Shown: positions 5,777-63,938 of the stretch, piece by piece | Numbering within the stretch: position 1 is the stretch's first letter | Layout of the letters: every line of letters begins with the position of its first letter | Assembly: GCA_947396885.1 (NCBI GenBank) | Contig: OX377202.1 | Span: 6,696,001 to 6,760,000 of the forward strand | Reading direction: 5' to 3' | DNA from: Heligmosomoides polygyrus polygyrus | Taxonomy: Eukaryota; Nematoda; Chromadorea; Rhabditida; Heligmosomidae | DNA length: 64,000 nucleotides | Notes under the pieces: model-generated | Told to the model about the DNA's origin: nothing | The model's database searches: none | What the model saw: the letters and a program-made list of their open reading frames with translations, nothing else | Position numbers and translations under genes: made by a program

Positions 5777-7139
5777 CCTTTCACCTAATACATACTCAGA
5801 TTGCGTCCTCGATATCCGCACAGTTAGAGGTGCATTCTAAAGAGGAACTGGTTAATGTCATAGTTTCTCCTTTATTTTTTAAGTGTAGATCAAGAACGCG
5901 ATCGACTGTATAGGTCAGGGACACGATCGGCGTTCCCATTTCGATTTTGTCCATTTTTTGCACAATATTAAAATTGAGAAAAATGGCCTTTATCCACCAT
6001 TTTTCGCACAGCGTCATATGTCGTTTGAAAGAAAATGTTCAGTTCTCTCAAAAAGTATTTTTTGTTCTTTGGCCATTCCAAATTTTGCTAATTTTAGGTC
6101 ATCAAAATGGAGTGAAAAAAAATTAATCAAAAGGTAGGAGCTGCTTTTAAAAATACATTTGAATGCCTTGAAAGTTAAGGATAAAGGATAAAGGACGGCG
6201 TTATCAATCCCTTTTGGGATGCGCCACGCATTCTACTTCTACAGGATGTAGTGGAGGCGACATGAATGCGTATTTGGCCATACAATGACTTACGGTGGCC
6301 AGCCGATGTACAAGTCAGTGCTTCATCCTTCCCAGATAAGTCAGGTACCAATTCACCGACCCCGGAGGGATGGAAGGCTTGGTTGGTATGGGCGGGAAAT
6401 CCGAACCAGGAACATATTATCGGATGCACGCGACAGTCGGTGCCTCCTCCGCCTGCGCTACACTCGCCCACCCTGAAAGTTATCCAACATCAAGGTGAAG
6501 ATAAAGTACAACAAATATCTTTGTAGGGCAAATCATGCTTCTTTGAAGGTTTATAACATTGTACAAAGAAACACTCAAACATAAGCAGAGAGAAGAATCT
6601 GTCGGCGAAGGTCATTTTTTTACTTTCCACTTGGAGACCAAAAAAATAACAAAAATTGAGATGAGAAAAGCGAAACATCCTTTATGGTGAGAGTAACCAT
6701 AACACAATAAAAATAGTTTTTTACGGACCACTGAACTCAATCTCAATTTTTCTTTTTTTTAAACATTCTGCTAAAAATTGATAAATTCGAAACGGGAAAA
6801 AAGCGAAACGTACTCTCTGATAGACAAAATCATATTTTCGAATGGTATATAAGATTGACACTTTGCAAAAATTATTTTGCGAAATTCAGAATAAGATGCA
6901 TAAAAAAACGGAGGGACTTACCTACCTACCTACCGAACTGGTTAGCTTTCAACCTTATGGACACTTTCCTCCTCGACATCCCGCACAAATCGAGTGCGTG
7001 GCGCAACCCAAACAGGAACTGGTTGACGTCATTGTTTGTCCTTCATTTTTTAAGTGTAGATCAAGAACGCGATCGACTGTATAGGTCACGGACACGATCG
7101 ACTGTATAGGTCACGGACACGATCGACATCGGCATCGAC
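5777..7139. repeat. AT-rich repeat block with a duplicated segment
   Basis: Two copies of a segment ending in AAGTGTAGATCAAGAACGCG (5880-5900 and 7050-7070) frame the block. At 7069-7120 the CGATCGACTGTATAGGTCAC unit is tandemly doubled. A decayed SINE-A 3' part (CGACATCCCG, GTGCGTGGCGCA) is seen at 6975-7010. A SINE-A sits at 6179-6470. Confidence 0.5.
6179..6470 (-). mobile_element. SINE-A copy, full length
   Basis: Minus-strand tRNA-derived SINE: tail (AAAGGATAAAGGACGGCG on +) at left, tRNA-like head at right with the B-box region reading GGTTCGGATTTCCCGCCC in the consensus. Flanks CCTTGAAAGTTA and CCCTGAAAGTTA are a 12-bp target duplication with one mismatch. It is inserted in the CTCCACTTTAATG repeat. 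Confidence 0.85.
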
Positions 7140-7419
7140 AGCGCGGACCGCACGGATCGCATGGTGACCCCTATCTGAAGACTTCTTCTTTTATTTGAAG
7201 ACCTTACGGACGCGTCCTCAATGAATGCTACTTAGTTCAAACCATTTTTCCCGTCTGCGTCAGTTTTTGCACTGAAAGGCCTCTTTGGATGAAATTCAAC
7301 GGCATTTTCCTCCATACTCCAGCTGCTGTTCTTCATAGAGCTGCTGCTCACTTCTTCAGCTCATTCCCTCTGTGTTTGCTTTTCGTTAGATGTAGAGTAT
7401 AACTGTGTTGTCTTCGTTT

Positions 7420-7516
7420 TTATTGATGAATTCCTAATTTGAGGGGACCAGACATAGTTGGAGAAGTTGCTCTTCCATCTTCATCAACCTCCTCCAAGTC
7501 ATTTTCGTTGAAAATG
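7420..7516 (-). CDS. Possible terminal exon, acidic C-terminus
   Basis: Reading right to left, after a CCCTCTAG acceptor-like site the frame reads IFNENDLEEVDEDGRATSPT and on to GPLKLGIHQ and a TAA stop that overlaps AATAAA. Composition is protein-like and the other frames are closed. No upstream exon can be linked because a MITE abuts at 7546. It may be a gene or an old element. The rest of 7140-7545 shows nothing recognisable. Confidence 0.3.
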
Positions 7517-7545
7517 CTAGAGGGTGGGTGGGTACATACACACCT

Positions 7546-7699
7546 GGGGCCGGATTCGTCAACGACTAACCCGTGGGTATAGAGGGTAGATATACCCACG
7601 GTGAAATCTTCGTCTCTGACTCTTACCTTATCTCTACTTGACTCTTATCATCACCCCTTATACTCCGCATACCCACAGGTTCAATTGTTGATGAACCCC
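7546..7699. mobile_element. GGGGCCGGATTC MITE
   Basis: Left end GGGGCCGGATTCGTCAAC pairs with right end GTTGATGAACCCC. Subterminal GTGGGTAT and ATACCCAC blocks are also inverted. Non-coding. A second copy with better preserved ends is at 10785-10947. Confidence 0.65.
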
Positions 7700-7734
7700 T
7701 GATATTCTCTAAAAATCATGGCAGGAATAAAAAA

Positions 7735-8100
7735 GGTGCAATCCCAAGGGGGGCACTCCATAGTCACTATTAAATAGTATTTGAAGGTAAACGCACACAA
7801 CATAACGTATAAAAGTGCTTACCTGATGACCTCCCGTGAAAACAGCGGGTCCCGTCGCCGGAATATTGAAAATGTAGGTACAAAAGCATAAAAAGGCTCC
7901 ACCGGCTAATCCCCGTTTAAACTCCCGCGCTGCCGAATGCGTGAGCGTCGACTGACTCATCCTGGGGCGATACGTAGAGGTGACCCGGGGACGCCTGGGG
8001 TGTATTTTTGATTATTATTGTTTGCTTTCTTTTTTGTTTTTGTTTTTGTTCTAATGTTTTTTGTCGGGTACTCCCAGGGCACTCCTTCTGTTGGGGCTTA
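7735..8100. repeat. Dispersed repeat D, copy 1
   Basis: GGGGGCACTCC, AACATAACGTATAA, TTACCTGATG, CAGCGGGTCC, GGAATATTGA and GTCGACTGACTCA-type blocks occur in the same order at 13757-14150. The minus-strand ORF through both reads NIPATGPAV, but differing stops and frames argue against a conserved protein. Confidence 0.6.
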
Positions 8101-8101
8101 A

Positions 8102-8636
8102 ATTGGGTTGAGCTTGGCAATCCTGGACGACGAGTTGAAGGAATTGGTGGAGGCTGAGCAATCCCAAATAGTTCGCGGGATCGTGGAAGAGCTAGACGCC
8201 AATATAGTGGCACTGGGCGCGTGTAGCGCAGTCGGAGGAGGCGCCGACTGTCGCCTGCACCCGATACCAGGTTCCTTGTTCGGATTTTCGGCCCAGGCCA
8301 ACCAAGCCTTCCATCCCTCCGGGGTCGGTGAATTGGTACCAGACGTGTCTTGAAGGGATAAAGCGCTGACTTGTTCATCGGCTAGCCACCGCAAGTTATT
8401 GTATTACCAAATACGCATTCAACACGCCTCCACGACATCCCGTAGAAGTAGAATGCGTGGCGTATCCAAAAAAGGATTGAGTAACGCCGTCCTTTATCTT
8501 TATCTTTTATAGTGGCATTGAATATGAGGAATTGAAATTGCTCGCAACTAAGGGAGACAGCTTCGTTCCACGGTGTTCACATTCTAAGAAGAGACTCACT
8601 AATTTCTTTGTTTTTCTTCAACGAATGCGTAGCTAG
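8102..8636 (+). pseudogene. Coding-like ORF split by a SINE
   Basis: Left of the SINE the frame reads LAILDDELKELVEAEQSQIV and continues GIVEELDANIVAL. Right of it another frame reads EYEELKLLATKGDSFVPRCS then HSKKRLTNFFVFLQRMRS and a stop. Removing the SINE and one target copy brings the parts together but one frameshift apart. I do not recognise the family; a retroelement gag-like protein or a dead host exon are both possible. Confidence 0.4.
8216..8508 (+). mobile_element. SINE-A copy, full length
   Basis: tRNA-like head GGGCGCGTGTAGCGCAGTCG (A box) at left, then GGTTCCTTGTTCGG (B-box region), conserved body and a CTTTATCTTTATC tail. Flanked by a 12-bp duplication, ATAGTGGCACTG and ATAGTGGCATTG (8204-8215, 8509-8520). 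It interrupts a coding-like sequence. Confidence 0.88.
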
Positions 8637-8715
8637 TTGACAATTTCTGAAATTGACTTTCTTAGACGGTGCCAATTTCAATTATGTTTAGCCGCTGCAG
8701 AATATCAGCCATCAT

Positions 8716-9027
8716 AAAGGGATAAAAGACGGCGTTACTCAATCCCTTTTGGGATGCGCAAGGCATTCTACTTTTATGGGACGTCGTGGAGGCGATTTGA
8801 ATGCGTATTTGGCCACTCAAACGACTGGGAATGAAAACCTGAAAAACCTGTGGTGGCCAGCCGATGAACAAGTCAGCGCTTTATCCTCCCCAGACAAGTC
8901 TGGTATAAATTCACCGACCCCGGAGGGATCGACGGCTTAGTTGGCCTGGGCGGGAAATTCGAACCAGGAACCTGGTATCGGGTGCAGGCGACAGTCGGCG
9001 CCTCCTCCGACCGAGCTACACGTGCCC
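8716..9027 (-). mobile_element. SINE-A copy with a 20-bp internal insertion
   Basis: Tail AAAGGGATAAAAGACGGCG at left, tRNA-like head at right (AGCTACACGTGCCC). Between the ATGCGTATTTGGCC and GTGGTGGCCAGCC blocks there is extra sequence (AATGAAAACCTGAAAAACC) absent from other copies. No clear target duplication. Confidence 0.8.
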
Positions 9028-9295
9028 ATCCCCGAGCATGTAAAGCGGAAAAGGGTATTTATGCTAGGAATTTCAGCGAAATTTTTAAGCACTGTGACGA
9101 ACTGCTACACAGAACTTAAGCGAGTTTGAAAAGTGCAGCACTGATTCACGCAGAGATTGAGTGTGCTGTAAATAGACGTGCTTGCTCATGGATCGCAATT
9201 TTTTGAACGAGAAAGGAGGAAGAAGGTTGCTAATTAGTTTGCCCTTGGCAGGCTCTATTAGGTTGAAGGGAGAGTCCTGTCTGGTAGTTCACGAT
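9028..9295. other. No recognisable gene
   Basis: Mixed-composition sequence without motif, repeat match or long open frame that I can support. Confidence 0.4.
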
Positions 9296-10050: not shown

Positions 10051-10087
10051 GTATTAACTGTCATTTTTGAAGCACTCTTTAATGTCG

Positions 10088-11209: not shown

Positions 11210-11637
11210 TATTTTTGTTTGTCCATAGGCTGACCACCGCAGGTCATTTTCATTGTAGAGACCAAATAAAAGGATAAAGGATAAAGGACGGCGTTACTCA
11301 ATCCGTTCTGGGATGCGCCAGCGCATTCTACTTCTGCGGGATGTCGTGGAGGCGACATGAATGCGTATTTGGCCATACAGTGACTTGCGGTGGCCAGCCA
11401 ATGAACAAGTCAGCGCTTTGTCCTTCCAAGACAAGTCTGGTACCAATTCACCGACCCCGGAGGGATGAAAGGCTTGGTGGCCTGGGCGGGAAATCCGAAC
11501 CAGGGACCTGGTATCGTGTGCACGCGGCAGTCGCGGCTCCTCCGACTGCGCTACACGCGCCCAGAGGCCAAATACGCACACAAATTGCACCGAAAACTTT
11601 CCGTAGAAGTAGAATGCATGGCGCATCCCAAAAGGCA
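11210..11637 (+). repeat. Older SINE-A fragment, split by a younger copy
   Basis: Left piece (GTCCATAGGCTGACCACCGC to GACCAAATA) and right piece (CGCACACAAATTGCACCG to CATGGCGCATCCCAAAAGG) are consecutive parts of the SINE-A body in plus orientation. They are separated by a complete minus-strand SINE-A. Confidence 0.75.
11269..11562 (-). mobile_element. SINE-A copy nested in an older SINE-A
   Basis: Tail AAAGGATAAAGGACGGCG at left, head (GCTACACGCGCC) at right. Flanked by AGACCAAATA (11259-11268) and AGGCCAAATA (11565-11574), a target duplication made from the host SINE sequence. Confidence 0.85.
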
Positions 11638-12466
11638 TTCAAGCCGAATTGGACACTTTTCAAATCAAACTGGACACTCCATAAAGTGGCGTTAAGACTT
11701 TCGAAATTAAAGTGACCTTCAGGCAGGTTAAACTACAGACTCACTAAGATACTTAGAACAATTTTTTGTTCAAGAAAAATCTTGTAGAACTTTTTTTGGA
11801 AATTTTCGGTTCACCTGTCCCAAGATGTGTAATAATTCATAAAATTTTATTTTTTGAGAAAATAATAAACTAAATTTTGTTTTAAAGCGAAACAAGGCAG
11901 CAATGTCATGTAGTGCATTAAAAGACTGGATCGCGCATGAACTCGAAAAGCAAGTCACAATGTTTATTTGATTGATAGTGTAAATACTATTTACATGCAA
12001 CATCAAAGAGGGGATATGTCTTTTTTTCTTTTTTTCTACAATTGTTTATTTCGCACCGTTTGCAGGTGTGAAACTCCATTCAAACAGAGATTTATCTTGC
12101 TATCAGTCGAGTAAAAGTCGCGAAATTTCGGACGAGGGCATGGCACAATTTCTGTTTCGGCAATAAAAATGGCCGCCTTCCTGCCCTCTAATGGAAGCTT
12201 TTTTCATCGAAATAAAAAATCTTACAAAATTTCAAACAATGTGCTCACTTATTGGGTATGTGAACTTCAACTTCAAGAAAAAGTTACAATACAATTGTAT
12301 TTGAACAAAAAATTGGTCCAACCTTTTTGAATGTCTATAGTTTAATGTGCAAAAAAAACTCATTTCAATTTGGAAGAGTTCGTTTTGATTTCAGAAGTTT
12401 TAGGCTACCTTGGAATAGTGTTCAATTTGATTTGAAAAGTGTCCAATTTGATGTGAGAATGGTACA
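11638..12466 (+). repeat. LTE element, first of a back-to-back pair
   Basis: About 830 bp with long imperfect terminal arms. The left arm runs from AATTGGACACTTTTC through GTTAAACTACAGACTC. The right arm ends AGTGTCCAATTTGATGTGAG AATGGTA. The centre carries GGATCGCGCATGAACTC, GTTTGCAGGTGTGAAACTCC and GAGGGCATGGCACAATTTC. No ORF with a recognisable domain. Confidence 0.75.
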
Positions 12467-12467
12467 T

Positions 12468-13297: not shown

Positions 13298-13685
13298 TAT
13301 CGGTATGTATCCTTTATCTTTTGTTCTTAAGCTTTTTTATTTTCTTTTACATGTTTAATTACATGCTACAATAAGTGAAAGAATAAATAACGTTTTGAGG
13401 TTTCTACTTTTTCAGTCAAAGTTTTAGTCTTTTATATGCAGAGAAGCCCAAGTTCTCTGGTTAGCAAAAAAGAAGGCTGCAGCGGGCACTCCTTCCAGTA
13501 GGTGGTGACGCTTAATTTGATTGAGAGTTTAGATGCCATTTACCTGCAATTGTGCCGTGGAGAAGTGCATTGAATTTTTTTCGGTTTTTTGCATCCAAGG
13601 CAAACAGCAGATTAATGCGCGGCTGCACATAAGCAATAAAATTCGTTTATTTCGCAGTTTGGAGTATGCCAGAAGCAGTTGGGAG
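13298..13685. other. No gene; faint LTE-like remnants
   Basis: AT-rich. A weak LTE-centre resemblance (TTGATTGAGAGTTTAGATGC, ATTTACCTGCAATTGTG) appears at 13520-13620. Nothing coding is supported. Confidence 0.4.
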
Positions 13686-13756
13686 AAGGATAAAAGACGG
13701 CGTTATTCAATCCTTTTTTGAGATGCGCCACGCATTCTACTTTTACTGACAATTGT
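13686..13756 (-). mobile_element. SINE-A 3' fragment
   Basis: AAGGATAAAAGACGGCG, ATGCGCCACGCATTCTAC matches the SINE-A tail region only; the head is missing and repeat D follows directly. Confidence 0.7.
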
Positions 13757-14150
13757 GGAAGGGCAGAATTACAAATGGGGGCACTCCGTAATCACTTGCA
13801 TACCCCTCCTATTTGAGGATAATCACATGCAACATAACGTATAAACGAACTTACCTGATGGCCTTCCGACGAAACAGCGGGTCCTGTCGCTGGAATATTG
13901 AGAAAAATAGTTATAAAAGCATGAAGAGGCTCAAGCGGCTCCTTCGCAATCCTCGTTTGAATTCCTGCGCTAATCCGAATGCGTGCGCGTCGACTCATTC
14001 ACCGTGGGGCGACAGAGGGGTGACTCGGGGACGCCTAGGACGTACTTCTGTGTTTTTGTTTCTTTCTTCGTTGGTTTCTGTTTTTCGATGGTTCTGTTAG
14101 TGATTGGCCTTCTCAGGGGACTCTGCCAGGGGACCCTGTGGGCCACGTTA
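13757..14150. repeat. Dispersed repeat D, copy 2
   Basis: Same order of blocks as 7735-8100 (GGGGGCACTCCGTA, CATAACGTATAA, GAAACAGCGGGTCCTGTCG, GTCGACTCATTCACCG, GGGGACGCCTA). Conservation is scattered along the length with frame-disrupting indels, so it behaves as a non-coding repeat. Confidence 0.6.
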
Positions 14151-14194
14151 TAACTAGACTTGCGTCCGAGAACCAGTTATTAGGTGCCCCCCCC

Positions 14195-14412
14195 CACTTT
14201 TAGGATTGAACCCGTAGAAGCAAATTGAATGCGCACTTGTCCCATACCCGACTTGTGGTGAAGGAGTCGATGGTGTATTCAGTGATTTGGCATTTCCAGA
14301 CGAATCTGGACCGACTCCGAGGGATGGAAGGCTTGGTTAGCCTAGGCGAGATCTGAATCGTGAATCCTTCGTCGGAGTGCGAGCGTCAGTCGGCGCCTTC
14401 TTCGACTGCGCT
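14195..14412 (-). mobile_element. Decayed SINE-A copy
   Basis: CCGTAGAAGCAAATTGAATG, CAGACGAATCTGGACCGAC, GAGGGATGGAAGGCTTGG and GTCGGCGCCTTCTTCGAC follow SINE-A order but with many substitutions and a lost tail. Confidence 0.65.
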
Positions 14413-14694
14413 ACCACAGACTTCGTAAACATTACTGCAGATAAAAGAGAGCTTTCAGCACAATCATTTTTTGGAGAGTTTGCCGCCGGCGGCAAGCGGC
14501 AAAAGCGCGGAGCGGCAAGGTACAGCATTTCTACTCGGGACCTACTGCTGCTGTTCGCCCTCCCGCCTTCTGTCCGCACCCTGACCGCTCCCTGCCGCGA
14601 AAAGGCGCGAGCACACTCGGCAGCAGCGGCAGCGGCAGCAGCGGAGGCCAATGCTTAAGCATAGGGGCATCGATTCCCGCCAAATCGCTCCTAA
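14413..14694. other. GC-rich stretch, CAG/CGG-rich
   Basis: Contains GCCGCCGGCGGCAAGCGGC and a GGCAGCAGCGGCAGC tract. Antisense ORFs of similar length on both strands (AAAAAAAAE and similar) are low-complexity artefacts. Probably the decayed end of a GC-rich MITE. Confidence 0.4.
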
Positions 14695-24748: not shown

Positions 24749-24764
24749 AAATTCGGTGGCTAAC

Positions 24765-25999: not shown

Positions 26000-26324
26000 G
26001 TCAGTCGGCGAGAGCTTTACAAGGAGGTTGTGTGGAACTCATTGCCGCAGTCAAGAACTTCGCACGAGTTTAGCTGCTGTGCCGAGAAAACTTCCAACGG
26101 AACATGCATTAATTAGGCCGTGCGCCGACACAACAAGGAGGTCGAGCTCCTTATGAAGGAAGGAGCCGTGGGGAGCATGAGCTGAGGGAGTGAGAGGTAC
26201 AGCGAGGGACGTCGTTCGTGAACGGTGAATAATCACCGGAACCTGACTGGTATGGAGAACTTGTCGATTTGATGCGGCGGTGAGGAACCTCTGCTGCTCT
26301 CGAGTGTCTCTGTCATGCTAGACT

Positions 26325-26376
26325 GGGCTGCGCCGTGCATTCTACTTCTGCACGATGTCATATAGACAACTTCAAC
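26325..26376 (-). mobile_element. Decayed SINE-A tail fragment
   Basis: GCGCCGTGCATTCTACTTCT GCACGATGTC follows the SINE-A tail-proximal order with losses. Confidence 0.45.
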
Positions 26377-26756
26377 GCGATTTTTTTTGTCCTTAGAAGG
26401 GCAGCGAGATGGATAGTCGGCCTTTACTACAACTCCACTCCAACTCTGACAAAGGTTTGGAGCACCTCGGTAGGATCTAATCCTTGAATCGATTTGGAGC
26501 GAAAGCGATAATGTAATTTAATATTTTTACGTAATTTTTGCCTATTGACTGTGTTTATTGATCGACATTTTATTTATTTATTTATTGTTTATCATTTGTC
26601 GCATCACTTTGTGCGGATAAATATTATGGAATTCTACTGGATAGTGCCAATTTAAAAGCAGCTTTTTTCGGAATCAGCAGTGTGCGGGCTTAGCGACCGT
26701 TTATCACCACTGACTGGGGCTTCGCCCAAGAAGTCAATGGTAACTGGAATAGTTGT

Positions 26757-32760: not shown

Positions 32761-32922
32761 GTGGTAAACATTTTTTGACTATTTTTCTTCTATAGCTTCA
32801 TATTTCAGCGGTATCTTAGAACTGTGGTGTGTTACGCCAAGGGAATCGTAACATGTTGTCCTACTGTGAGCAGTTCATTGAAGAAATTCACGCCTAGCAA
32901 GGGTGCGCCCCTAATCCACATA

Positions 32923-33214
32923 AAGGATAAAAGGATAAAGGACGGCGTTACTCAATCCCTTCTGGGATGCGCTAGCGCATTCTACTTTAACGGGATATCG
33001 TGGAGGCGACATGAATGCGTATTTGGCCATACAATGACTTGCGGTGGCCAGCCGATGAACAAGTCAGCGTTTTATCCTTCCCAGACAAGTCTGGTACCAA
33101 TTCACCGACCCCGGAGGGATGGAAGGCTTGGTTGGCCTGGGCGGGAAATCCGAACCAGGAACCTGGTATCGGGTGCACGCGTCAGTCGCGCCTCCTCCGA
33201 CTGCGCTACACGCG
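32923..33214 (-). mobile_element. SINE-A copy, full length
   Basis: Tail AAAGGATAAAAGGATAAAGG at left, head GCTACACGCG at right. CCCCTAATCCACATA occurs at both ends (about 32908-32922, 33215-33229), a perfect target duplication of 14-15 bp. It is among the least decayed copies, hence probably young. Confidence 0.92.
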
Positions 33215-33239
33215 CCCCTAATCCACATAGCGCCTAAAA

Positions 33240-34752
33240 TTTCTGCTGGCAACGCGTTTCACACCATTATAAAAAAACATTGCAAAAACACTTTAAAAAA
33301 ACAATTGCAAAGAACACACATATCCCCACTTTATATAGGCAGCATTTATAGTATCAATCAAATAAAAATCGCGACTAACTTTTCGAAGGCATGGCGCGAC
33401 CTCGTTCACTAGTGCACTGAGTGATTGCTGTCCTGTTGCACTTTAAAACAAAACTTAATTTACTATTTCTTTTTAAAAAATTTTCATTCAATTCTTTAAT
33501 ATTATTCGTTCGGGCAGCTGAGCTAAAAAAAAATCACAAAGAGAGTTATACTAAAATTTTCCTTGAACAAAAAATTATTCTGGCCATATTATTGACTCTT
33601 ATTTTGTTTTAATCTTATTGTATTCCAACCTACCTGAAGGTGATTTCTATTAGGAAAAAAACAACTAGAATTTCTTCTAAAGCACATCAAAAATACAAGC
33701 ATATAACGCGCTATAAGATTTCTCTTTGGAAGGGTTAGAATAATTTTTCGTTCAAGGAAAATTTATGTATAACTCTCTTCAATTTTATGTTTAATAAGTT
33801 ATAGGTTAGAAAACTTTTTAAAAACTAAAAAAACTGATGTAAGTTTTAATGCGCCCACCCAATGAGGGGACATATTGTTTGACATTTTGTGGAAAAAACA
33901 TTTTTTGAGGAAAGGTAATGGCTAAGAGCTGTTTTGAAGATCGCAAGACGGCCATTTTTTTGTGTCAAAGAAAGAGATTGCGCCATGCCCCTGTCCAAGA
34001 CATCGGCATTTTTATTCGATTGATAACGAATTTTCTGCTTGCGCGGAGTTTCACACCTGTAAACATTGCAAAAACAAAAGGGCGCGTGTAGCGCAGTCGG
34101 AGGAGGCGCCACTGCCGCGCGTGCACCCGATACCAGGTTCCTGGTTCGGATTTCCCGCCCAGGCCAACCAAGCCCTCCATCTCACCGGGGTCGGTGAATT
34201 GGTACCAGACTTGTCTGGAAAGGATAAAGCGCTGACTTGTTCATCGGCTGGCCACCGCAAGTCATTGTGTGGCCAAATACGCATTCATGTCGCCTCCACG
34301 ACATCCCGTAGAAGTAGAATGCGCGGCGCATCCCAAAATGGATTCAGTAACGCCGTCCTTTGTCCTTTATCCTAAACATTACAAAAAAAACAATTGCAAA
34401 GAACACATATCCTCACTTTATGTAAGCAGTATTTACAGTATCAACCTAATCAAAATCGTGACCAACTTTTCGTTCGAGTGCATGGTTCGAGCTCGTTCAC
34501 TAATGCACTAAATGATTGCTGTCAGCTGAGCTAAAAAATCTGAAAGAAAGTTATACTGAAATTTTCCTTGAACAGAAAATTATTCTAACCATATTATTGA
34601 CTCTTATTTTGTTCTAATCTTGTTGTGTTTTAACCTACCTGCAGGTGATTTCTATTTGGAAGAGTCCGCTCTGATTTCAAAGGGCTTCGGCTAGATTACG
34701 GTGTCTAATTTCATTCGAAAAGTGTCCAATTCGACGAGAAAATGTTATGTGT
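33240..34752. repeat. LTE copies, the second split by a SINE
   Basis: Centre and arm blocks at 33295-33600 (CTAACTTTTCGAAGGCATGG) are followed by arms to 34080. After the SINE at 34080-34371 the same blocks resume (AACACATATCCTCACTTTAT) and end with TGTCCAATTCGACGAGAAAA TG near 34742. Confidence 0.6.
34080..34371 (+). mobile_element. SINE-A copy, full length
   Basis: GGGCGCGTGTAGCGCAGTCG head, GGTTCCTGGTTCGGATTTCC B-box region and a GTCCTTTGTCCTTTATCC tail. Flanks TAAACATTGCAAAAAC and TAAACATTACAAAAAA are the diverged target duplication in LTE sequence. Confidence 0.9.
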
Positions 34753-35680: not shown

Positions 35681-35689
35681 ACTTTTTCA

Positions 35690-37368: not shown

Positions 37369-37408
37369 ACGGTAAGAACGACGTCAAAAACTCGGCAAGT
37401 GTGGCGCT

Positions 37409-38945: not shown

Positions 38946-39221
38946 CCGACCTAAGGTTCTTGGTTCCGGTCCCGCCCAGGCCAAACCAAATCATCGTCCA
39001 ACCGCTTCCACAATGCCTCGTAGAAGCGAAATGCGTGGCGCATCCAATTGAGTTGCACGAGGACTTCTATCTATCTGCTTTATTTTATAACGTTTTATTA
39101 AAGTTAGTGGTAACTCTGCTAAACTTCACTGGTTGTAGAAGACCTTTTAAACAATAAGAGTAGGGATGTGCGCAAATTTTTGTAAAAAAAAAACGAAAGA
39201 CGAGATGCGGAATTTGAAATA

Positions 39222-39509
39222 TAAAGGATAAAGGACGGCGTTACTCAATCCCTTTTAGGATGCGCCAGGCACTCTACTTCTACGGGATGTCGTGGAGTGA
39301 TTTGAAAGCTTATTTGGCCATACAATGACTTGCGGTGGCCAGCCGATGGACAAGTCAGCGCTTTATCCTTCCCAGACAAGTCTGGTATCAATTCACCGAC
39401 CCCGAAAGGATGGAGGGCTTGGTTGGCCTGAGCGGGATATCCGAACCAGGAACCTGGTATCGGGTGCACGCGACAGCCGGCACCTCATCCGACTGCGCTA
39501 CTCGCACCC
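39222..39509 (-). mobile_element. SINE-A copy, insertion proven by an empty paralogous site
   Basis: Tail AAAGGATAAAGGACGGCG at left and head (GCGCTACTCGCACC) at right. Flanks ATTTGAAATA (39212-39221) and ATTCGAAATA (39510-39519). In the paralogous segment the site reads CTCGAAATATAAGAGCTC (about 51697-51714) with a single copy of the flank and no SINE. Confidence 0.92.
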
Positions 39510-39667
39510 ATTCGAAATACAAGCGCTCAAAAATGGCTAGAAACCGGTCTTGGACCACGGATGCAGGTGTAGTCTCTGGTTAAGAGTGTTTCCTGTTCGC
39601 TCATGATCGCAGCCATAGAAATCTGCTGCTTGATGCCTTTGTGATATCCGCATATGAGTTCACTTGG

Positions 39668-39957
39668 TACATAGCGCAGTCCGAACAGGAGCCGGCTGTC
39701 GCATGCACTTCGTATCGATTCTTGGTTTGGGTTCCGCATGGCAATACTGAGCCAGCGATCACTTTGGCGTCCTTGAATTCGTTGTAGGTTTGTCTGGGGG
39801 TGATGATGCACTGAATTGTCCATCGTCTGGCCTGCGCCAGTGAATGTATAGACCAAGTGCACCTTCAAATTGCCTAAGCGACACCATGAAGGAGTAGAAT
39901 ACGCAGCGCTTCTCAAGGAGGGATTATTCAACGCTAACTTTTATCATCACCTACTAT
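39668..39957 (+). mobile_element. SINE variant (SINE-B), copy 1
   Basis: Head TACATAGCGCAGTCCGAACA (A box), GTATCGATTCTTGGTTTGGG TTCC (B-box region), then GAAGGAGTAGAATACGCAGC and AACGCTAACTTTTATCATCA at the 3' end. Same architecture as SINE-A, distinct sequence. It is shared with 51806-52080, so it predates the segment duplication. Confidence 0.7.
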
Positions 39958-40257
39958 CCTTTACTCACATATTGTTATTATTATTTTTATTTATTTGTTT
40001 ATTTATCTACGTGCATCATGGAAAGCGTGGACGTTCAGAAGGAAAACGAAGAAAGCAAATGTGAGAGAAACATTGAGGCTTATAGAATTTTGAACCTTAA
40101 TAAAGCAAATAAACTTAAGTCCTCACAAAACTTGCTAAAATATAAGGTAAAACAAGCTTTCACTTATAAATGGAAGTAAAAAAAGTTCTTTCCTTGAAAG
40201 TCGCCACGTTTACGAGCTACAAAAATGTAGTCTTTCCATCCCTGTTCCCTTAGGCTC

Positions 40258-41190: not shown

Positions 41191-41333
41191 TGGGAAGGGA
41201 TGGATTATCGCCACCCTTTTTAGTTTTTCCTTAGGTTTGTATCAGAAGATCAGTAGACTGCTAACTTTCATGCATAGTCTCAAGGCATAGATGCAGGCAT
41301 GGTCAGCCATTGCCGATCCCTTCCTGGTATGTG

Positions 41334-41624
41334 GGGCGCGTGGAGCGCAGTCGGAGGAGGTGCCGGCTGCTGCGTGCACCCTATACCAGGTTCCTGGTTC
41401 GGATTTCCCGCCCAGGCCAACCATGCCTTCCATCCCTCCGGGGTAGGTGAATTGGTACCAGACTTGTCTGGGAAGGATAGAGCGCTGACTTGTTCATCGG
41501 CTGGCCACCGCAAGGCATTGTATGGCCAAATACGCATTCAAGTCGCCTCCACGACATCCCGTTGAAGTAGAATGCGTAGCGCATCCCGAAAAAGGGATTG
41601 AATAACGCCGTCCTTCATCCGCTA
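41334..41624 (+). mobile_element. SINE-A copy, full length
   Basis: GGGCGCGTGGAGCGCAGTCG head, GGTTCCTGGTTCGGATTTCC and a CCTTCATCCGCTA tail. TCCTGGTATGTG flanks both ends exactly (41322-41333, 41625-41636), a 12-bp target duplication. Confidence 0.92.
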
Positions 41625-41636
41625 TCCTGGTATGTG

Positions 41637-41877
41637 TCACGCACTCTACATACTTTTGTAGGACGTCGTGTAATTTGAATACGTATTTGTCCTAGACATA
41701 CAATGACCTGCTGGAGTCAATCGTTGAACAAATTACAGTTTTCTATCCTTACCAGATAAACCATCTTGTCGATCCTGGGGGATGGAAGGCTTATCCTGGG
41801 CGGGGCCCGAACCAAGAACCCTGTGCCGTGGTGCACGGATCACTGGTATCTCCCCTGCTACCTCATTACTACACGCA
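41637..41877 (-). mobile_element. Decayed SINE-A copy
   Basis: CACGCACTCTACATACTTTT, TACAATGACCTGCTGGAGTC, GGGGGATGGAAGGCTT and CCGAACCAAGAACC keep SINE-A order with heavy divergence. The younger copy at 41334 was inserted at its tail side. Confidence 0.65.
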
Positions 41878-45023: not shown

Positions 45024-45030
45024 AGCAAGT

Positions 45031-45312
45031 TAAAGGATAAGGATAAAGGACGGCGTTACTCAATCTCTTTGGGATGCGCCACGCATTCTTCTTCTACGGG
45101 ATGTCGTGGAGGCGATTTGGCCATACAACGACTTGCGGTGCCTAGCCAACGAACAAGTCAGCGCTTTTTCCTTCCCAGACACGTTTGGTACCAATTCGCC
45201 GACCCCGGAGGGATGGAAGGCTTGGTTGGCCTGGGCGGGAAATCCGAACCAGGAACCTGGTATCCGGTGCAGGCGACAGACGGCGCCTCCTCAGACTGCG
45301 CTCCACGCGCCC
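45031..45312 (-). mobile_element. SINE-A copy, full length
   Basis: Tail AAAGGATAAGGATAAAGG at left, head GCTCCACGCGCCC at right. AGCAAGTTAA on both sides (45024-45033, 45313-45322) is the target duplication. A small internal deletion removes the ATGCGTA part of the body. Confidence 0.9.
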
Positions 45313-45458
45313 AGCAAGTTAACACGAATAAAAACAAGGAAACAACTAAAACACGAATAAAAACGTCGAATCAGTGAGAACGATTAAGTGAACATGAATA
45401 TGATAAAAGAGTTCACAACAAAAGCAAATAAGGAAATTTATACAATAATTTATATTTT

Positions 45459-51274: not shown

Positions 51275-51500
51275 ATGGTTATAACCACAGTATTCTCTGG
51301 TTCAGTCGGAGGAGACGTCGACTCTCGCACGCACCTCGAATCGATTCAGGGTTTCGGTTCCACAAAGTCCGAAATGTGTTCCGTTCCTTTCACGTTGGCT
51401 AGGAGCGTTGCCTGGAAGAAACAAAACACGGTTTTGCTGGCTCCTCCTCCTTTGTGTAGTCGGGAAACACCTTCAGATTACTTCCACGATACCTCATAGA
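51275..51500 (+). repeat. Decayed SINE relative
   Basis: CAGTCGGAGGAGACGTCGAC TCTCGCACGCACC and TTTCGGTTCC keep SINE head order but no clear tail. It sits at the left edge of the duplicated segment. Confidence 0.45.
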
Positions 51501-52400
51501 AATGAAATGCGTGGCGCACACAGCCAGCTAATTGAACGAGGACTTCTATCCCGTCGTTTTTTCGTAACTTTTTAGTTAGAGTTAGTTAAATGCATTGTTT
51601 TAAGAGACCTTTTCATCATTTAGAGTAGAAGTGTTTTTTGTAAAATTTAAAATTGTGAAATTTTAGTAAAAAAATAATACGAAATACGAAACTCGAAATA
51701 TAAGAGCTCAAAATGGCTAGAAATCGGGTCTTGGACCACATACGCGTAACCTCCGTACATTTCCAGTCCATCATGTTCGCTCAAAATTGCAGTCATAGAA
51801 ATCTGCTTTACATAGCGCAGTCGGAACAGGCGCTGGTCGTCGCTTGCACCTCGTATCGATTCTTGGTTCAGGTTCCGCTGGGCAATACTGAACCAATGAT
51901 CACTTTGAGGTCCGTGAACTAATCGTAGATTTGTCTGGGTCGATGAAGCACTGAAATGTCCATGGTTTGGCCAACACAAATCAATATATGGTCCAGAAAC
52001 TCCATCAAATTGTCCCGTGGAAGTAGAATACGCGGCGCTTCCCAAACAAGGATTCCTTAACGCCAACCTTTATCATCTCTTATCGTTTAAACAAATATTG
52101 CTGGTATTACATTTACTTCATTTTTTATTTTTTACGTTCATAATGGACAAGGATGAATGTTTAGGAGAGAAATGAAGAGCGCAAACATATGAAAAACGAT
52201 AACGCTTATAAAAATTTGAAACTTGAAAAGCAATTAAACTTAATCCTTACAAAACTTGATGAAATATAAGGTGAAAATAAATTTGAACTTACAAATAGAA
52301 ATAAAACATATTTGCTATACTATTAATATTATTTGCTTTGTGAAGGTTTCCACGTTTACGAGCTGTAAAAACATATAGTCAATCCATCCGCGTTCACTTG
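51500..52400 (+). repeat. Duplicated segment, copy B (without SINE-A)
   Basis: Paralogue of 39020-40257. The sequence passes uninterrupted from AAACTCGAAATATAAGAGCT to CAAAATGGCTAGAAATCGG where copy A holds SINE-A. Diverged overall, so the duplication is old. Confidence 0.8.
51806..52080 (+). mobile_element. SINE variant (SINE-B), copy 2
   Basis: CATAGCGCAGTCGGAACAGG, GTATCGATTCTTGGTTCAGG TTCC, AAGTAGAATACGCGGCGCTT and AACGCCAACCTTTATCATCT. Paralogous position to 39668-39957. Confidence 0.7.
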
Positions 52401-52404
52401 AGTT

Positions 52405-52480
52405 ATATATGAAGGACAAAGGACGGTGTTAATCAACCTTCGTACGGGGTTGCGCCATGCATTCTAATTCCACTGGTTTT
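52405..52480 (-). mobile_element. SINE-A tail fragment
   Basis: AAGGACAAAGGACGGTGTTA and GTTGCGCCATGCATTCTAAT. Another copy begins just downstream. Confidence 0.6.
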
Positions 52481-52490
52481 CAGTGAAGGC

Positions 52491-52737
52491 AACACAGCGT
52501 TAGTCAAATCCTACGGGGATGCGCTACGCATTATCATTCTTCTACGGGATATCGTGGAGGCTTGAATTCGGATTTGTCCATACAATGACTATCCTTCTCA
52601 GGCATGTCTGGTACCAATTCACCGATCCTGGAGGCATGGGAAGCTTGGTTGGCCTGGGCGGGAAATCCGAACCAAGAGCCTGGCATCGGATGCACGAGAC
52701 AGCCGGCACCTCCTCCGACTGCGTTACACACGCCCGT
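52491..52737 (-). mobile_element. SINE-A copy, internally deleted
   Basis: AACACAGCGTTAGTCAAATC to GCGTTACACACGCCC. Lacks the GGTGGCCAGCCGATGAACAA part of the body. Confidence 0.75.
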
Positions 52738-53289
52738 GGCTGATATAAAATTATTGGGTTTTTTCCTTGTTCTTAGATTTTAACATTTAATAGCCGTGTT
52801 TTTATATGGCGGTTACAAAATATTAAAACCTAAGAAAAGCGAAAACTCAAAGCAATATACGATTAAATTCAAAATTTTAACCTACAAAACAATTTAAAAT
52901 GCTAACTGACAAAACATCGGCCTAAATAAATAAATGTAAATAAATAAATAAATAAATGTGTTTATTTGTTGTTTGAACGTTTCTGAATTTTTAAACCCGA
53001 TAAAAACTTCCATCCACGTTTTCCTGAGTTGCATATAATCGTTAAAAAAGTATTTTTGTTGTTGTTGGGGAATTGCTGAGTATGAATGCTTTATTTTTTA
53101 CACAAGCACTGCTTTTAAATGCTCATGTCTAGCAATTGCTCTCCTGTGTGGGTTTGTACGCCGAGAAGCCTTAAAATACCGCAAAAAGATAAAAATACAG
53201 AAAAATACAAAACAAAAAAAATATTGAAATGTTTCTGCTTAAGACTGCTACGCATCTAGTTTCTGAGGACATGTTTTGGTGTCTAGAAT
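52738..53289. other. AT-rich, no gene; TAAA microsatellite
   Basis: TAAATAAATAAATG runs at 52922-52955, then AT-rich sequence with lysine/phenylalanine-rich shadow ORFs. Confidence 0.45.
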
Positions 53290-53319
53290 TTGCGGTAGAA
53301 AAGATTTTGCATCGGCTAT

Positions 53320-53573
53320 CGCATGAACTCCGAATCGAGGCTCTTGGTACGGATTCCCTCACCTCGACCAGCCAAGCCAAGCCTTTCATCCCGCCGGCAT
53401 AATTGACCACTTGTCTGGGAACGATACAGCACTCACTTGTCTATCTTGTGGTCAGCAAAAGTCTATGTATAGATGAAACACGCATTCAGATCGCCTCCAC
53501 GGCATCCCGTAGAAGTAAAATGTGTGGCGCATCCCGGAAGGGATTGAATAACGCCGTACTTTATCCTCTGTTG
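53320..53573 (+). mobile_element. Decayed SINE-A copy
   Basis: CGAATCGAGGCTCTTGGTAC GG, CACTTGTCTGGGAACGATAC, CGCATTCAGATCGCCTCCAC, GTAGAAGTAAAATGTGTGGC and CGCCGTACTTTATCC. The A box is not recognisable. Confidence 0.7.
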
Positions 53574-53944
53574 TGGCCGTGTTATTCAAGCTGTTGAGTA
53601 AAAAATTGCCTGTTTAAAACCAGTAGTTCTATCCATTTGGCTAAGAACTCAATGGGCTATACATATGTGGACGTCTTCGCGTCTCATTAGCTAATGGACT
53701 GAGCATCGTTCGTCTGTCATAACGACCTCTTCAGCTCTCGTTTTTCTTCTGAACCATATACGATTCTATGTAAACCTCGTCATTTTAGGCATATGCCATT
53801 CGAGCTCCTTATAGAAAATATCAGGCTAAATATTTCAGCGGCTAATTTGGCTCCAACTATTTACGAGAATTTTTAACTGGCATTCTCCACATGATCGTGT
53901 TCCGTGTTCATTTCAACGCTCAATTTTATTTTCCATGTGATGCT
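53574..53944. other. No recognisable gene
   Basis: An acceptor-like AATATTTCAG/CGGC at 53860 is not followed by a long frame. Nothing else. Confidence 0.35.
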
Positions 53945-56080: not shown

Positions 56081-56373
56081 TGGGCGCGAGTGGCGCAGTA
56101 AGAGTTGGCGCCGACTGTCGCATGCACCCCATACCAGGTTCCTGGTTCGGATTCCCCGCCCAGGCTGACCAAGCCTTCCATCCCTCCGGGGTCGGTGAAT
56201 TGGTGCCAGACTTGTTTAAGAAGGATAGAGCGCTGATTTGTTCACCGGTCGACCACAGCAAGTCATTGTGTGGTCAAATACGCATTCAAATCGCCTCCAC
56301 GACATCCCGTAGAAGTTGAATGCATGGCGCATCCCAAAAGAGATTGAATAATCCCTCCTTTATCCTTATCCTT
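56081..56373 (+). mobile_element. SINE-A copy, full length
   Basis: GGGCGCGAGTGGCGCAGTAA head, GGTTCCTGGTTCGGATTCCC, body and a CCTTTATCCTTATCC tail. No clear target duplication because the tail runs into T-rich DNA. Confidence 0.85.
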
Positions 56374-56436
56374 TATTTTTATTTTTATTTTGTTTTGTAT
56401 AGTTTGTACTTCGTGCCTTGTATTTTTTATTGAAGA

Positions 56437-56699
56437 AAGGCGAATAATCAATGCTTTCTGGGATGCGGCACGCATTCTACCTTTAGGTGAGGACATGGAT
56501 AAAATTCGAAAGCAATGAGTTGCGACAGTCAGCCGATGGAAAATTCAGTGTTTTATCACTCCCGAATGAGTCTAACACCCATTCACCGTTCTGGACGAGT
56601 GGAAGGCTTGGTTGACCTGAGCGGAAAATCCGAACCAGGAACTGGAATCGGGTGGACGCGACAACCGGCGCCTCCTACGACTGCGCTAACATACACCCA
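56437..56699 (-). mobile_element. Decayed SINE-A copy
   Basis: GGGATGCGGCACGCATTCTA, CAGCCGATGGAAAATTCAG, GGCTTGGTTGACCTGAGCGG and GACTGCGCTAACATACACCC. Confidence 0.75.
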
Positions 56700-58250: not shown

Positions 58251-58264
58251 CTTGTTGAATAAAA

Positions 58265-58566
58265 AGGATAAAAGGATAAAGGATGGCGTTATTCAATCCC
58301 CTTTGGGATGCGCCACGCATTCTACTTCTGCGGGATGTCGTGGAGGCGAGTTGAATGCGTATTTGGCCATACAATGACGTGTTTGGCCATACAATGACAG
58401 CCGATGAACAAGTCAGTGCTTTATCCTTCCCAGACAAGTCTGGTACCAATTCACCGACCCCGGAGGGATGGAAGGCATGGTTGGCCTGGGCGGAAATCCG
58501 AACCAGGAAGCTGGTATCAGGTGCAGGCGACAGTCGGCGCCTCCTCCGACTGCGCTCCACGCGCCA
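58265..58566 (-). mobile_element. SINE-A copy with internal 20-bp duplication
   Basis: Tail AAAGGATAAAGGATGGCG, head GCTCCACGCGCC. TGTTGAATAAAA (58253-58264) and TGTTGGATAAAA (58567-58578) flank it. TTTGGCCATACAATGAC occurs twice in tandem at about 58360-58397 and the TGCGGTGGCC block is lost. Confidence 0.88.
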
Positions 58567-58769
58567 TGTTGGATAAAATCACTCAATTCTTGCAAAACTT
58601 TCTGCACACCCTAATATTTATATGTCGTCCTTTTACATGAGATGATGACGTTCCAAACATTCCAAACATTCCTATGGGGAACGTCTGCTTTTATTTTTTT
58701 GTGACTGAGTGTTTGTGCAGGGAAGTTTTGCGGCTCAAGAAGCTAAAGTAAAATTGTCACCCTGATGGC

Positions 58770-61037: not shown

Positions 61038-61041
61038 TATT

Positions 61042-61449
61042 GACCTTTTTCAATTTTTATTTTTAGCACATATTTGATTTGTTTTTACTTTACCATTATT
61101 ACCTGGCCAATGCACCATGTAGAAAATTTCGAGACAGCCACGCAAGATTTGACCGTCTTTCGCCCACACCTCAAACTTGGGTAATTGAACCTTTGTTATT
61201 TCGTTAAAATAACGACATCAACAAATAGTACAAAATACAAAAACGGATAAGGAAACATGCGAAATGGCTGCTCGTTCTTTTTTTATGCTAAGCAACACTT
61301 TTATATGAATGAAACAACGGAAGGAATGTAAACATTCGACAGCCAAGAGAACAGAAACACTACGCTCGTGAGATAGCTTCTAGGAAGGCAATTTACTAAT
61401 CAGCGAGATAATTAAACTATGCAACTGAAAAATAGAGTGTAAGTCTGAG
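61042..61449. other. No recognisable gene
   Basis: AT-rich, nothing supported. A minus-strand CTATTTTTCAG/TTGC acceptor-like site near 61430 lacks a following frame. Confidence 0.35.
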
Positions 61450-62519: not shown

Positions 62520-62700
62520 GAGATCGGTGAATTTGCTGTTAAGAGAGATTGCGCCGTGCACTACGCGCCGTTCTACACATTGCGTTCATCACTTAATCTG
62601 AACCGGATTTACACAAGCAGTCGAATAAACATTGTTAAGTTCGAGACGAGTGAGTCAGCAGCTGTAAGCGACTTCATTAACACGTTCTGTGTTTTTTAAA
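62520..62700. repeat. Weak LTE-centre remnant
   Basis: GAGATTGCGCCGTGCAC, TTTACACAAGCAGTCGAATA AACATTG resemble LTE central blocks; the rest is lost. Confidence 0.4.
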
Positions 62701-62902
62701 AGAGGAAATAACTTTTCGGGGAATAATTCGCTCCTTTCTTACTCTTCCTTCCGTATTTCCTTTTTCATTATTTTTTAAGGTTTCTTACGATATCGTCGTC
62801 TTCAAATGTACACTGCTTCTGTCAGCCTATTTTCAATCTCTTCTTCTAAAGTATGTTGGAAGTTGTGTATACATTATGGAGACTTAATTTTGACTATTTC
62901 AG

Positions 62903-62979
62903 TTAACGAGGCAAGACGACAGATACGAGGGTGATCACTATCACCACAGTCGAAGCGTTTCTCCGCATCCTCATTCAAG
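62903..62979 (+). CDS. Best candidate host exon (77 bp)
   Basis: Acceptor TTTTGACTATTTCAG ends at 62902 and donor AAG/GTATGTAC starts at 62980, both close to nematode consensus. Only one frame is open: LTRQDDRYEGDHYHHSRSVS then PHPHS, polar and His/Ser-rich. The exon is 25 codons plus two bases, so it needs a spliced continuation. No neighbouring exon could be linked in the window, and the protein is not recognised. Confidence 0.5.
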
Positions 62980-62995
62980 GTATGTACAGTTGTTC

Positions 62996-63160
62996 TCGAA
63001 CGAGTACATTCGAATAATTAGAATAATTAATTATTCGAATAGTCGAATATTGACATTTCTAGAATTTCGAATATTGAAATGAATTTGAATTCGAACGTCG
63101 AAAGGGAGCCATATATTTATTCGTTTATTCGTTTTCGAACGATTCGAATAAAACGAATTT
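62996..63160. repeat. TTCGAAT-rich AT repeat
   Basis: CTCGAACGAGTACATTCGAA start and repeated ATTCGAATA, as at 26757 and 38560. It lies in the presumed intron after the 62903 exon. Confidence 0.6.
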
Positions 63161-63650
63161 AAAAAAGAAAACGAATAGAATATTTTATTCTGGCAGCTCG
63201 CATACCACGCTGTCGTAGCCGAGCTGCCAGGATTAGCGACACAGACCGAAACCCTCCTACATTTAAGCGGAAAAGATTGAGCCATGCTCTAGTCCAAGGT
63301 GTCTCATCGAGAAGAATTGTGCGCGTTTGTTTCTGATCGCTTGTATAGGGCAAGCGATTCAGAATTCCACATGCCTTCTCCGTGGAGCAATCCTTTCGAC
63401 AATTAACCATCCGGGAAGAATTGAAGAATCGGTTTCTCTCTGCACCTAATCAAACCCCCGAAAATGATGAATCTATGCGAAATCTGTAAGAAAGCAGCAG
63501 GTGCTCCTCCTCCAGTCATGTTCTCCAGATGCTTTTTCATGTTGAATGAAGATTTGTTTCGAAAAATGCTAGAAACTTCTGTTCAAAACTGTGTTTTCAT
63601 GTGGTTTCGCACTCATTTTGGCATTATCTACAAGTTACTTCTCTATAAAG
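63161..63650. other. No supported gene; ORF with ATG at 63464
   Basis: Plus ORF from ATG at 63464 reads MNLCEICKKAAGAPPPVMFS and FFMLNEDLFRKMLETSVQNC, running into the SINE at 63651. It could be an exon start, unproven. A minus ORF at 63159-63410 has no recognisable motif. Confidence 0.25.
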
Positions 63651-63938
63651 GATAAAAGGATAAAGGACGGCGTTATTAAATCTCTTTTGGGATGCGCCAC
63701 GCATTCTACTTCTTCGAGATATCGTGGAGCGATTTGAATATGTATTTGGCCATGCAATGACTTGCGGTGGCCAGCCGATGAACAATTCTGCGCTCTCTCC
63801 TTCCTAGACAAGTCTGTACCAGTTATCCGACCCCGAAGGGATGGAAGGCTTAGTTGTCCTGGGCGGGAAATCCGAACCAGGAACCTGGTATCGGGTGCAC
63901 GCGACAGTCGGCGCCTCCTCCGACTGCGCTACACGCGC
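63651..63938 (-). mobile_element. SINE-A copy, near full length
   Basis: Tail AAAGGATAAAGGACGGCG, body with GTGGCCAGCCGATGAACAA, head GCTACACGCGCCC at right. A small deletion at CAAGTCTGTACCAG. No clear target duplication. Confidence 0.88.

What the first reader, a model, noticed from the sequence alone, without database searches (positions are those of the whole stretch)
6179..63938. High-density tRNA-derived SINE family (SINE-A) with a long conserved body
About a dozen near-complete (about 290 bp) and about ten partial copies lie in 64 kb on both strands. Read from the head: GGGCGCGTGTAGCGCAGTCG (A box), GGTTCCTGGTTCGGATTTCC (B-box region), a roughly 200-bp body ending CGCCGTC, and a CTTTATC-type tail. 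Several copies have clear 9-15 bp target duplications (8216, 11269, 32923, 41334, 45031, 58265). The pieces fit an RNA polymerase III SINE moved by a LINE. I do not recognise it as a named family.
Basis: partly seen in the sequence, partly recalled or inferred. Interest (0 to 1): 0.75.

Follow-up and report, generated by a model that had tools for sequence, protein, structure and literature searches.

The report
Strongylid worm SINE with repeat tail
This is a real, abundant, short copy-and-paste DNA parasite in the genome of a mouse gut roundworm (Heligmosomoides); its long middle part also turns up in single sheep-stomach-worm and hookworm protein predictions, so it looks like a new family of a well-known kind of mobile element.

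Summary
Confirmed. The window holds 12 near-complete copies of a 277-nt unit plus a CTTTATC-type tail, and 13 older or partial hits: 25 in all, 8.9% of the window, 0 in the reversed window. Target-site duplications flank 9 of 12 (control 5 of 132 shuffled pairs), and 24 of 30 copies from the first 1.5 Mb of contig C1 (control 16 of 870). The head 14-mer occurs 13,890 times in the 656-Mb assembly, its backward control twice. Some copies are 98-99.6% identical to consensus with perfect duplications: recent activity. The host is Heligmosomoides, probably H. polygyrus. New here: body and tail, but not recognisably the head, recur in one Haemonchus contortus and one Ancylostoma ceylanicum protein prediction, suggesting a strongylid-wide body with exchangeable or fast-evolving heads. 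Not shown: pol III transcription, tRNA origin (A box perfect, B box degenerate; ARAGORN and Rfam make no call) and the LINE partner (not found). Curated Heligmosomoides repeat libraries exist and may already hold it. I file it as a new member of a known kind; 'tRNA-derived' and 'moved by a LINE' stay inferences.

The parts
8214..8512 (+). near-complete SINE copy with tail, TSD TATAGTGGCA
32918..33218 (-). near-complete SINE copy with tail, TSD TATGTGGATTAGG; closest of the 12 to consensus (96.4%)
34079..34380 (+). near-complete SINE copy, TSD TAAACATTGCAAAAACAA (imperfect)
39212..39510 (-). near-complete SINE copy, TSD TATTTCGAAT (one mismatch)
41333..41634 (+). near-complete SINE copy, TSD TCCTGGTATGTG, beside an older minus-strand copy (nesting likely, not shown)
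11264..11563 (-). near-complete SINE copy, TSD TATTTGGCCTCT (one mismatch), lying inside an older plus-strand copy; the joined flanks give one alignment to consensus 157-264 that crosses the junction with a 7-nt gap there
45028..45313 (-). near-complete SINE copy with a 12-nt internal deletion, TSD TTAACTTGCT
58259..58567 (-). near-complete SINE copy with a short internal duplication, TSD TTTTATCCAACA (one mismatch)
6169..6470 (-). near-complete SINE copy, TSD TAACTTTCAGGG (one mismatch)
63643..63941 (-). near-complete SINE copy, no clear TSD
8706..9028 (-). near-complete SINE copy with 23-nt internal insertion, no clear TSD
56081..56379 (+). near-complete SINE copy, no clear TSD
52402..52736 (-). 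older copy with internal deletion, followed by a second 3' end (consensus 209-276)
56422..56699 (-). older diverged copy (72% to the copy at 33217)
53289..53577 (+). older diverged copy (72% to the copy at 33217)
39664..39962 (+). possible second subfamily, 72% to the copy at 51805 and 64% to the copy at 33217
51805..52091 (+). possible second subfamily, partner of the copy at 39664
14157..14422 (-). old diverged copy (64%)
41605..41872 (-). old diverged copy flanking the 41333 insertion
51290..51565 (+). old diverged copy (55%)
11566..11640 (+). right part of the older copy around the 11264-11563 insertion (left part matched at 11219-11248)
13676..13784 (-). 3' end fragment with tail
6943..7055 (+). 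3' body fragment
38954..39091 (+). internally deleted copy: end of head joined to 3' body
26303..26524 (-). old diverged body fragment

Best explanation
A SINE family (non-autonomous retroposon) of the nematode Heligmosomoides. Anatomy: a pol III-type head (1-76) with a perfect A box at 10-21 and a degenerate B box at 63-73, a conserved body (77-277) and a tail of one to a few CCTTTAT-type units. Mechanism, inferred: pol III transcribes from the internal boxes; an unidentified LINE's endonuclease nicks an AT-rich site (the 23 duplications tallied start with T in 15 and A in 6); its reverse transcriptase primes on the tail (target-primed reverse transcription), adding tail units by slippage, and usually copies to the 5' end, leaving duplications of most often 12-13 bp. 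Shown: the repeated unit with uniform 5' end, directional tail, target duplications, high copy number, near-identical young copies. Inferred: transcription, the LINE, priming on the tail.
For: 25 window hits with a reversed-window control of 0. TSDs 9/12 against 5/132 and 24/30 against 16/870. Of the first 30 loci found by the 3' end alone, all in the first 1.5 Mb of contig C1, 30/30 carry the body and 29/30 start at consensus position 6 or earlier. Head 14-mer 13,890 against control 2; 3' 18-mer 12,373 against control 0. Those 30 copies are 82.8-99.6% to their consensus. One insertion inside an older copy, whose joined flanks align across the junction with a 7-nt gap (77%, E 1e-19). No terminal inverted or long direct repeats. 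Body and tail found in Haemonchus and Ancylostoma predictions.
Against: B box 3 mismatches from the motif I used (recalled consensus); the A+B pair within the first 20 nt is matched by 41 of 2000 shuffles, anywhere by 313 of 2000. No tRNA call by ARAGORN or by Rfam at E<=1. No LINE with this tail or 3' end found. RNAalifold shows no covarying fold (covariation term +0.94, 17 copies). 3 of 12 window copies and 5 of 30 sampled ones have no TSD of score 7 or more, among them near-consensus copies (L012 and L034, each 98.2%). No expression data.
Confidence: 0.93

Rival explanations
1. It is the 3' end of a larger LINE or other autonomous element, seen as fragments.
For: Orphan 3'-end pieces exist in the window (6943, 13676); the LINE partner is unknown.
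Against: 30 of 30 loci picked by the 3' end alone carry the body, 29 of 30 from the same 5' end; in 24 of 30 a target duplication lies at that 5' end.
Confidence: 0.03
2. A miniature DNA transposon (MITE).
For: Short and abundant; mariner-type remnants lie in the same window.
Against: No terminal inverted repeats; duplications of variable length, 8-17 bp; directional tandem tail at one end only.
Confidence: 0.01
3. A SINE whose head derives from a small RNA other than tRNA, or that has lost pol III promoter function and is copied from pol II read-through.
For: Head not called as tRNA; degenerate B box.
Against: Precise 5' end in 29 of 30 sampled loci; A box without mismatch in 7 of 12 window copies; the back-translated Haemonchus head permits a perfect B box (16 of 500 shuffles do as well). 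None of the 10 Rfam matches at E<=1 in the window lies on a near-complete copy.
Confidence: 0.15

Closest known systems
tRNA-type (pol III, A/B box) SINEs in general
   Same: Length, internal boxes, body, directional tail, target duplications, high copy number.
   Different: Head not recognised as a tRNA; B box degenerate; A-to-B distance 53 nt, longer than the roughly 44 I recall as usual.
SINE superfamilies defined by a shared central domain under different heads (CORE, V, Deu and Ceph are recalled names; HaSE1/HaSE2 in PMC3272025, seen only as search listing and start of abstract)
   Same: Body found in three worm families while the head is not recognisably shared in the two named relatives.
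   Different: Body not compared with those domains (no SINE library here); only one protein prediction per named relative.
SINEs with short tandem-repeat tails mobilised by CR1- or RTE-type LINEs (recalled)
   Same: Short repeated tail, variable target duplications.
   Different: The LINE families read here, CR1-like or RTE-like by my recall of features, end in AT-rich, AGA, AAAGT or ATG repeats, not CCTTTAT.
Entries of curated strongylid repeat libraries (Stevens 2023, PMC10682056; Martinez-Ugalde 2026, PMC13195028; passages of both seen)
   Same: Same genus; 1,176 and 1,240 models for the two species; the 2026 paper lists SINEs as a category.
   Different: Consensus sequences not readable here, so identity unknown. 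The word SINE occurs 0 times in the main text of Stevens 2023, and the 2026 passages describe no SINE family.

Membership tests
SINE (non-autonomous retroposon) | Short unit with uniform 5' end in many copies | tested here: met
   277 nt + tail; 29 of 30 loci (first 1.5 Mb of contig C1) start at consensus position <=6; 13,890 exact head 14-mers
SINE (non-autonomous retroposon) | Variable-length target-site duplications | tested here: met
   9/12 window copies, 24/30 sampled loci, most often 12-13 bp, with shuffled-pair controls
SINE (non-autonomous retroposon) | Directional A-rich or tandem-repeat 3' tail | tested here: met
   CCTTTAT-type units in the 12 window copies and in 30 of 30 sampled loci, which were selected by an 18-mer that includes the first unit
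SINE (non-autonomous retroposon) | Partner LINE sharing tail or 3' sequence | tested here: inconclusive
   3 window LINE fragments and 5 LINE families (3' ends of 19 of 30 RT loci) have other tails; 150 of 36,619 first-look RT candidates were scored
tRNA-derived (pol III type 2) SINE | A and B boxes at the 5' end | tested here: inconclusive
   A box 0 mismatches, B box 3 in the consensus; shuffles reach this within the first 20 nt in 41 of 2000
tRNA-derived (pol III type 2) SINE | Head recognised as a tRNA homologue | tested here: not met
   ARAGORN and Rfam tRNA (E<=1) make no call on any copy; with ARAGORN's threshold lowered the single-copy calls disagree and the consensus gives none (first run; the second run's output was cut)
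tRNA-derived (pol III type 2) SINE | Transcribed by pol III | not testable with these tools
   no RNA data
5S- or 7SL-derived SINE | Head homologous to 5S rRNA or 7SL | tested here: not met
   No such match among the 10 Rfam matches at E<=1 in the window
Central-domain SINE superfamily | Same body under unrelated heads in different lineages | tested here: inconclusive
   Haemonchus: body 173/195 compatible nt, head score reached by 50 of 100 shuffles; Ancylostoma: body 166/189, head score reached by 7 of 100, with only 15 residues beyond the body; one prediction each, spliced models possible
Named superfamilies CORE, V, Deu, Ceph | Their specific domain sequence | not tested

The most novel reading that the evidence does not exclude
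The roughly 200-nt body plus CCTTTAT tail is the conserved domain of a strongylid-wide SINE superfamily (Heligmosomidae, Trichostrongylidae, Ancylostomatidae) in which the pol III head has been replaced or rebuilt independently while body and tail stayed under constraint, probably because they are what the partner LINE's machinery recognises. Young copies show that it moved recently in Heligmosomoides and may still move.
Probability: 0.4. Interest if true: 0.55.

Novelty: new member of a known kind. Interest (0 to 1): 0.4.

Why it matters
A recently active SINE with perhaps 30,000 near-complete copies (rough estimate) would give insertion-presence markers for the H. polygyrus/H. bakeri split and for strongylid populations, and a hook for finding its LINE. 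It also ends up in predicted proteins, so it contaminates gene sets. SINEs are among the repeats whose small RNAs are enriched with the exported worm Argonaute exWAGO (passage of PMC13195028), so a proper consensus would help small-RNA mapping.

Tried and rejected
Rejected: MITE (no TIRs, variable duplications), internal LINE fragment (30 of 30 loci with body), chance similarity (reversed-window control 0), conserved RNA fold (RNAalifold on 17 copies, covariation term unfavourable). Ten paper searches listed no paper that I could see to describe this family; the library holds only open-licence papers. The LINE search by tail pattern and a body-pattern count never got an answer.
Full report
Check of the observation. 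One copy used as a seed and then a majority consensus of 12 copies recover 12 near-complete units of 264-300 nt, on both strands, and 13 older or partial ones: 25 hits at E<=1e-3, 5,705 bases, 8.9% of the window. The same search on the reversed window gives 0 hits. Identity of the 12 to the consensus runs from 85.3 to 96.4%, median 93.0%. Eight older copies are 55-82% identical to the young copy at 33217.

Retroposition signature. For each of the 12 copies I looked for the best ungapped match between the 5' flank and the sequence after the body. A score of 7 or more is reached by 9 of 12, against 5 of 132 mismatched flank pairs; a score of 9 or more by 8 of 12 against 1 of 132. Copies at 63940, 56082 and 9027 show none. 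One copy (11264-11563, minus) sits inside an older plus-strand copy: with the insertion and one duplication removed, the joined flanks give a single alignment to consensus 157-264 (77% identity, E 1e-19) that crosses the junction, with a 7-nt gap placed there. The older copy is diverged, so this supports nesting without proving a clean empty site. For the second suspected nesting (41333) the joined flanks matched on one side only; I count it as likely, not shown.

Genome scale. The assembly holding the window has 656,174,362 bases in 1,130 contigs. The head 14-mer occurs 13,890 times (6,953 and 6,937 by strand), its backward control twice. The 3' 18-mer occurs 12,373 times, control 0. I took the first 30 loci of that 3' search, all from the first 1.5 Mb of contig C1, so this is a local and not a random genome sample: 30 of 30 have the body and 29 of 30 begin at consensus position 6 or earlier, the other at 18. 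Target duplications of score 8 or more flank 24 of 30 (16 of 870 control pairs); of the 23 tallied by length, 11 are 12 or 13 bp, the range is 8-17, and 15 start with T, 6 with A. Five of the 30 score below 7 (L012, L020, L021, L033, L034). The consensus of these 30 is 277 nt and 98.6% identical to the window consensus; single copies lie at 82.8-99.6%. The sample was chosen by an exact 3' end and therefore leans to young copies. Several of the youngest have perfect duplications (L018 at 99.6%, L028 at 99.3%), though L012 and L034, both 98.2%, show none. So the family moved recently; the two Heligmosomoides species differ by 6.6% at synonymous sites (passage of PMC10682056).

Copy number, a rough estimate of mine: 5 of 12 near-complete window copies have the exact head 14-mer, so 13,890 hits suggest about 33,000 near-complete copies. 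A small sample at round coordinates (4 stretches, 20 kb) has 4 hits, 1 of them full length, and 3.2% coverage: consistent, but a single count. By the head 14-mer the window is about 3.7 times denser than the genome average (5 against 1.35).

Host. The antisense frame of one copy finds 7 proteins, five of them from Heligmosomoides polygyrus, the best 92% identical over 64% of the query. The assembly size fits H. polygyrus ngHelPoly1.1 (656.6 Mb, 1,278 scaffolds) better than H. bakeri nxHelBake1.1 (649.2 Mb, 321 scaffolds) (table passage). The species is an inference; the genus I take as firm.

Relatives beyond the genus. A Haemonchus contortus prediction (P0007) and, through a profile search, an Ancylostoma ceylanicum prediction (P0011, E 1.9e-10) carry the unit in antisense; so do four proteins without organism names (P0008, P0009, P0010, P0012), and P0006 from the first search for the head and the start of the body. 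A frame-tolerant alignment that counts how many nucleotides the protein allows to match the consensus gives scores of 83-187 for the eight proteins tested (P0006-P0013, of 13 found), against at most 18 for 20 shuffles of each; random residues against random codons allow 0.40. For P0007 the alignment covers tail, whole body and part of the head (236 of 273 nt compatible; 40 further shuffles reach at most 21). Split by part, P0007 has 173/195 in the body and 17/18 in the tail, but its head score is reached by 50 of 100 shuffles; P0011 has 166/189 in the body, 9/9 (three codons) in the tail, and its head score is reached by 7 of 100, with only 15 residues beyond the body to test. In the four unnamed proteins the head does match (0 of 100 shuffles each). 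So two named relatives from other families share body and tail and not, recognisably, the head. Against this reading: it rests on one gene prediction per species, a splice junction could have cut away the true head, and a search from P0007 found no second Haemonchus protein. The residues next to the Haemonchus body permit a perfect B box (16 of 500 shuffles do so too) and an A box (110 of 500); the Ancylostoma ones permit a B box with one mismatch (119 of 500, no evidence).

Promoter. The consensus has an A box without mismatch at 10-21 and a B box with three mismatches at 63-73 (box motifs recalled). The A box has no mismatch in 7 of 12 window copies. An A+B pair as good as the consensus anywhere arises in 313 of 2000 shuffles, within the first 20 nt in 41 of 2000. 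ARAGORN finds no tRNA at any copy, Rfam none at E<=1, and a lowered ARAGORN threshold gives contradictory anticodons on single copies and nothing on the consensus. Pol III transcription is therefore the likeliest but unproved source of the RNA, argued mainly from the uniform 5' end and the A box.

LINE partner. In the window one LINE fragment ends in AAAGT repeats, one in AGA repeats and one in AAATA repeats; against the SINE consensus they give only chance matches of 9-14 nt at E 0.44 or more. A reverse-transcriptase search of the genome had 36,619 first-look candidates, scored 150 and gave 30 loci. Three of these carry SINE copies in their flanks (L040, L041, L064). I printed 3' ends for 19 of the 30, in five families: AATAAACAATTACAATTA (L046 of that family differs), AATAATAAT, AAATAAATA, ATGATGATG, and AATAAATAATAATGATAATAAT (seen in one of three copies only, the other two prints stop short). 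None of these has CCTTTAT. Of the other 11 loci I scanned only for tail-like words; in several the open frame runs past the end of the locus. The partner is unidentified; a tail-only (relaxed) or rare partner remains possible. The labels RTE and CR1 are mine from recall of sequence features; of the three window fragments given to Pfam, only the first matched RVT_1.

What is known. In the held papers I saw no description of this family in ten searches (listed under tried and rejected; listings and starts of abstracts, with passages read in three papers). Stevens 2023 (passages) built curated libraries of 1,176 and 1,240 models for the two species; the word SINE is not in its main text. [quoted passage not shown] The Haemonchus genome paper (PMC4053716, passages) reports two SINE families without detail. 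So the sequence may be catalogued already; its occurrence across worm families I found described nowhere in those searches.

Verdict. An ordinary kind of element, well shown, with two useful additions: it is young and abundant in Heligmosomoides, and its body and tail probably extend to other strongylid families.

Noticed in passing
window 61170-61191, minus strand: A 22-mer one mismatch from the nematode SL1 spliced leader (recalled sequence), followed by GTGTGGGCG and not by the SL RNA continuation I recall; may be an SL1 pseudogene or a retroposed trans-spliced cDNA.
   Followed up: partly
window 55358-55434, plus strand: ARAGORN calls tRNA-Thr with anticodon GGT, below Rfam's cut-off (25.1 of 29 bits); possibly another tRNA-like repeat head, with a partial inverted copy at 55165-55221.
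   Followed up: partly
window about 24676-24752, minus strand: Another A-box/B-box pair (TGGCGCAGTGGG ... GGTTCGATTC), single copy in the window.
   Followed up: partly
window 9306, 12413, 12485, 28605, 29652, 31498, 32298, 41057: Scattered short arrays of a 19-21 bp unit like TCAAATTGGACACTTTTC, once as a long inverted repeat at 12419-12525.
   Followed up: no
window 49847-49903: Long palindrome with TAATGACCTAAAAACTGACG arms; the Rfam matches there are below cut-off and probably chance.
   Followed up: no
window 35687-36151 (-), 36967-37383 (-), 60324-60920 (+): Mariner-type transposase remnants by Pfam.
   Followed up: partly
window 39664-39962 and 51805-52091: A possible older sister subfamily (72% to each other, 61-66% to the four young copies compared) sharing the A-box area and much of the 3' end.
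   Followed up: partly
L039-L068: Several reverse-transcriptase families in this genome have copies 98-99.8% identical to each other, so they look recently active.
   Followed up: no
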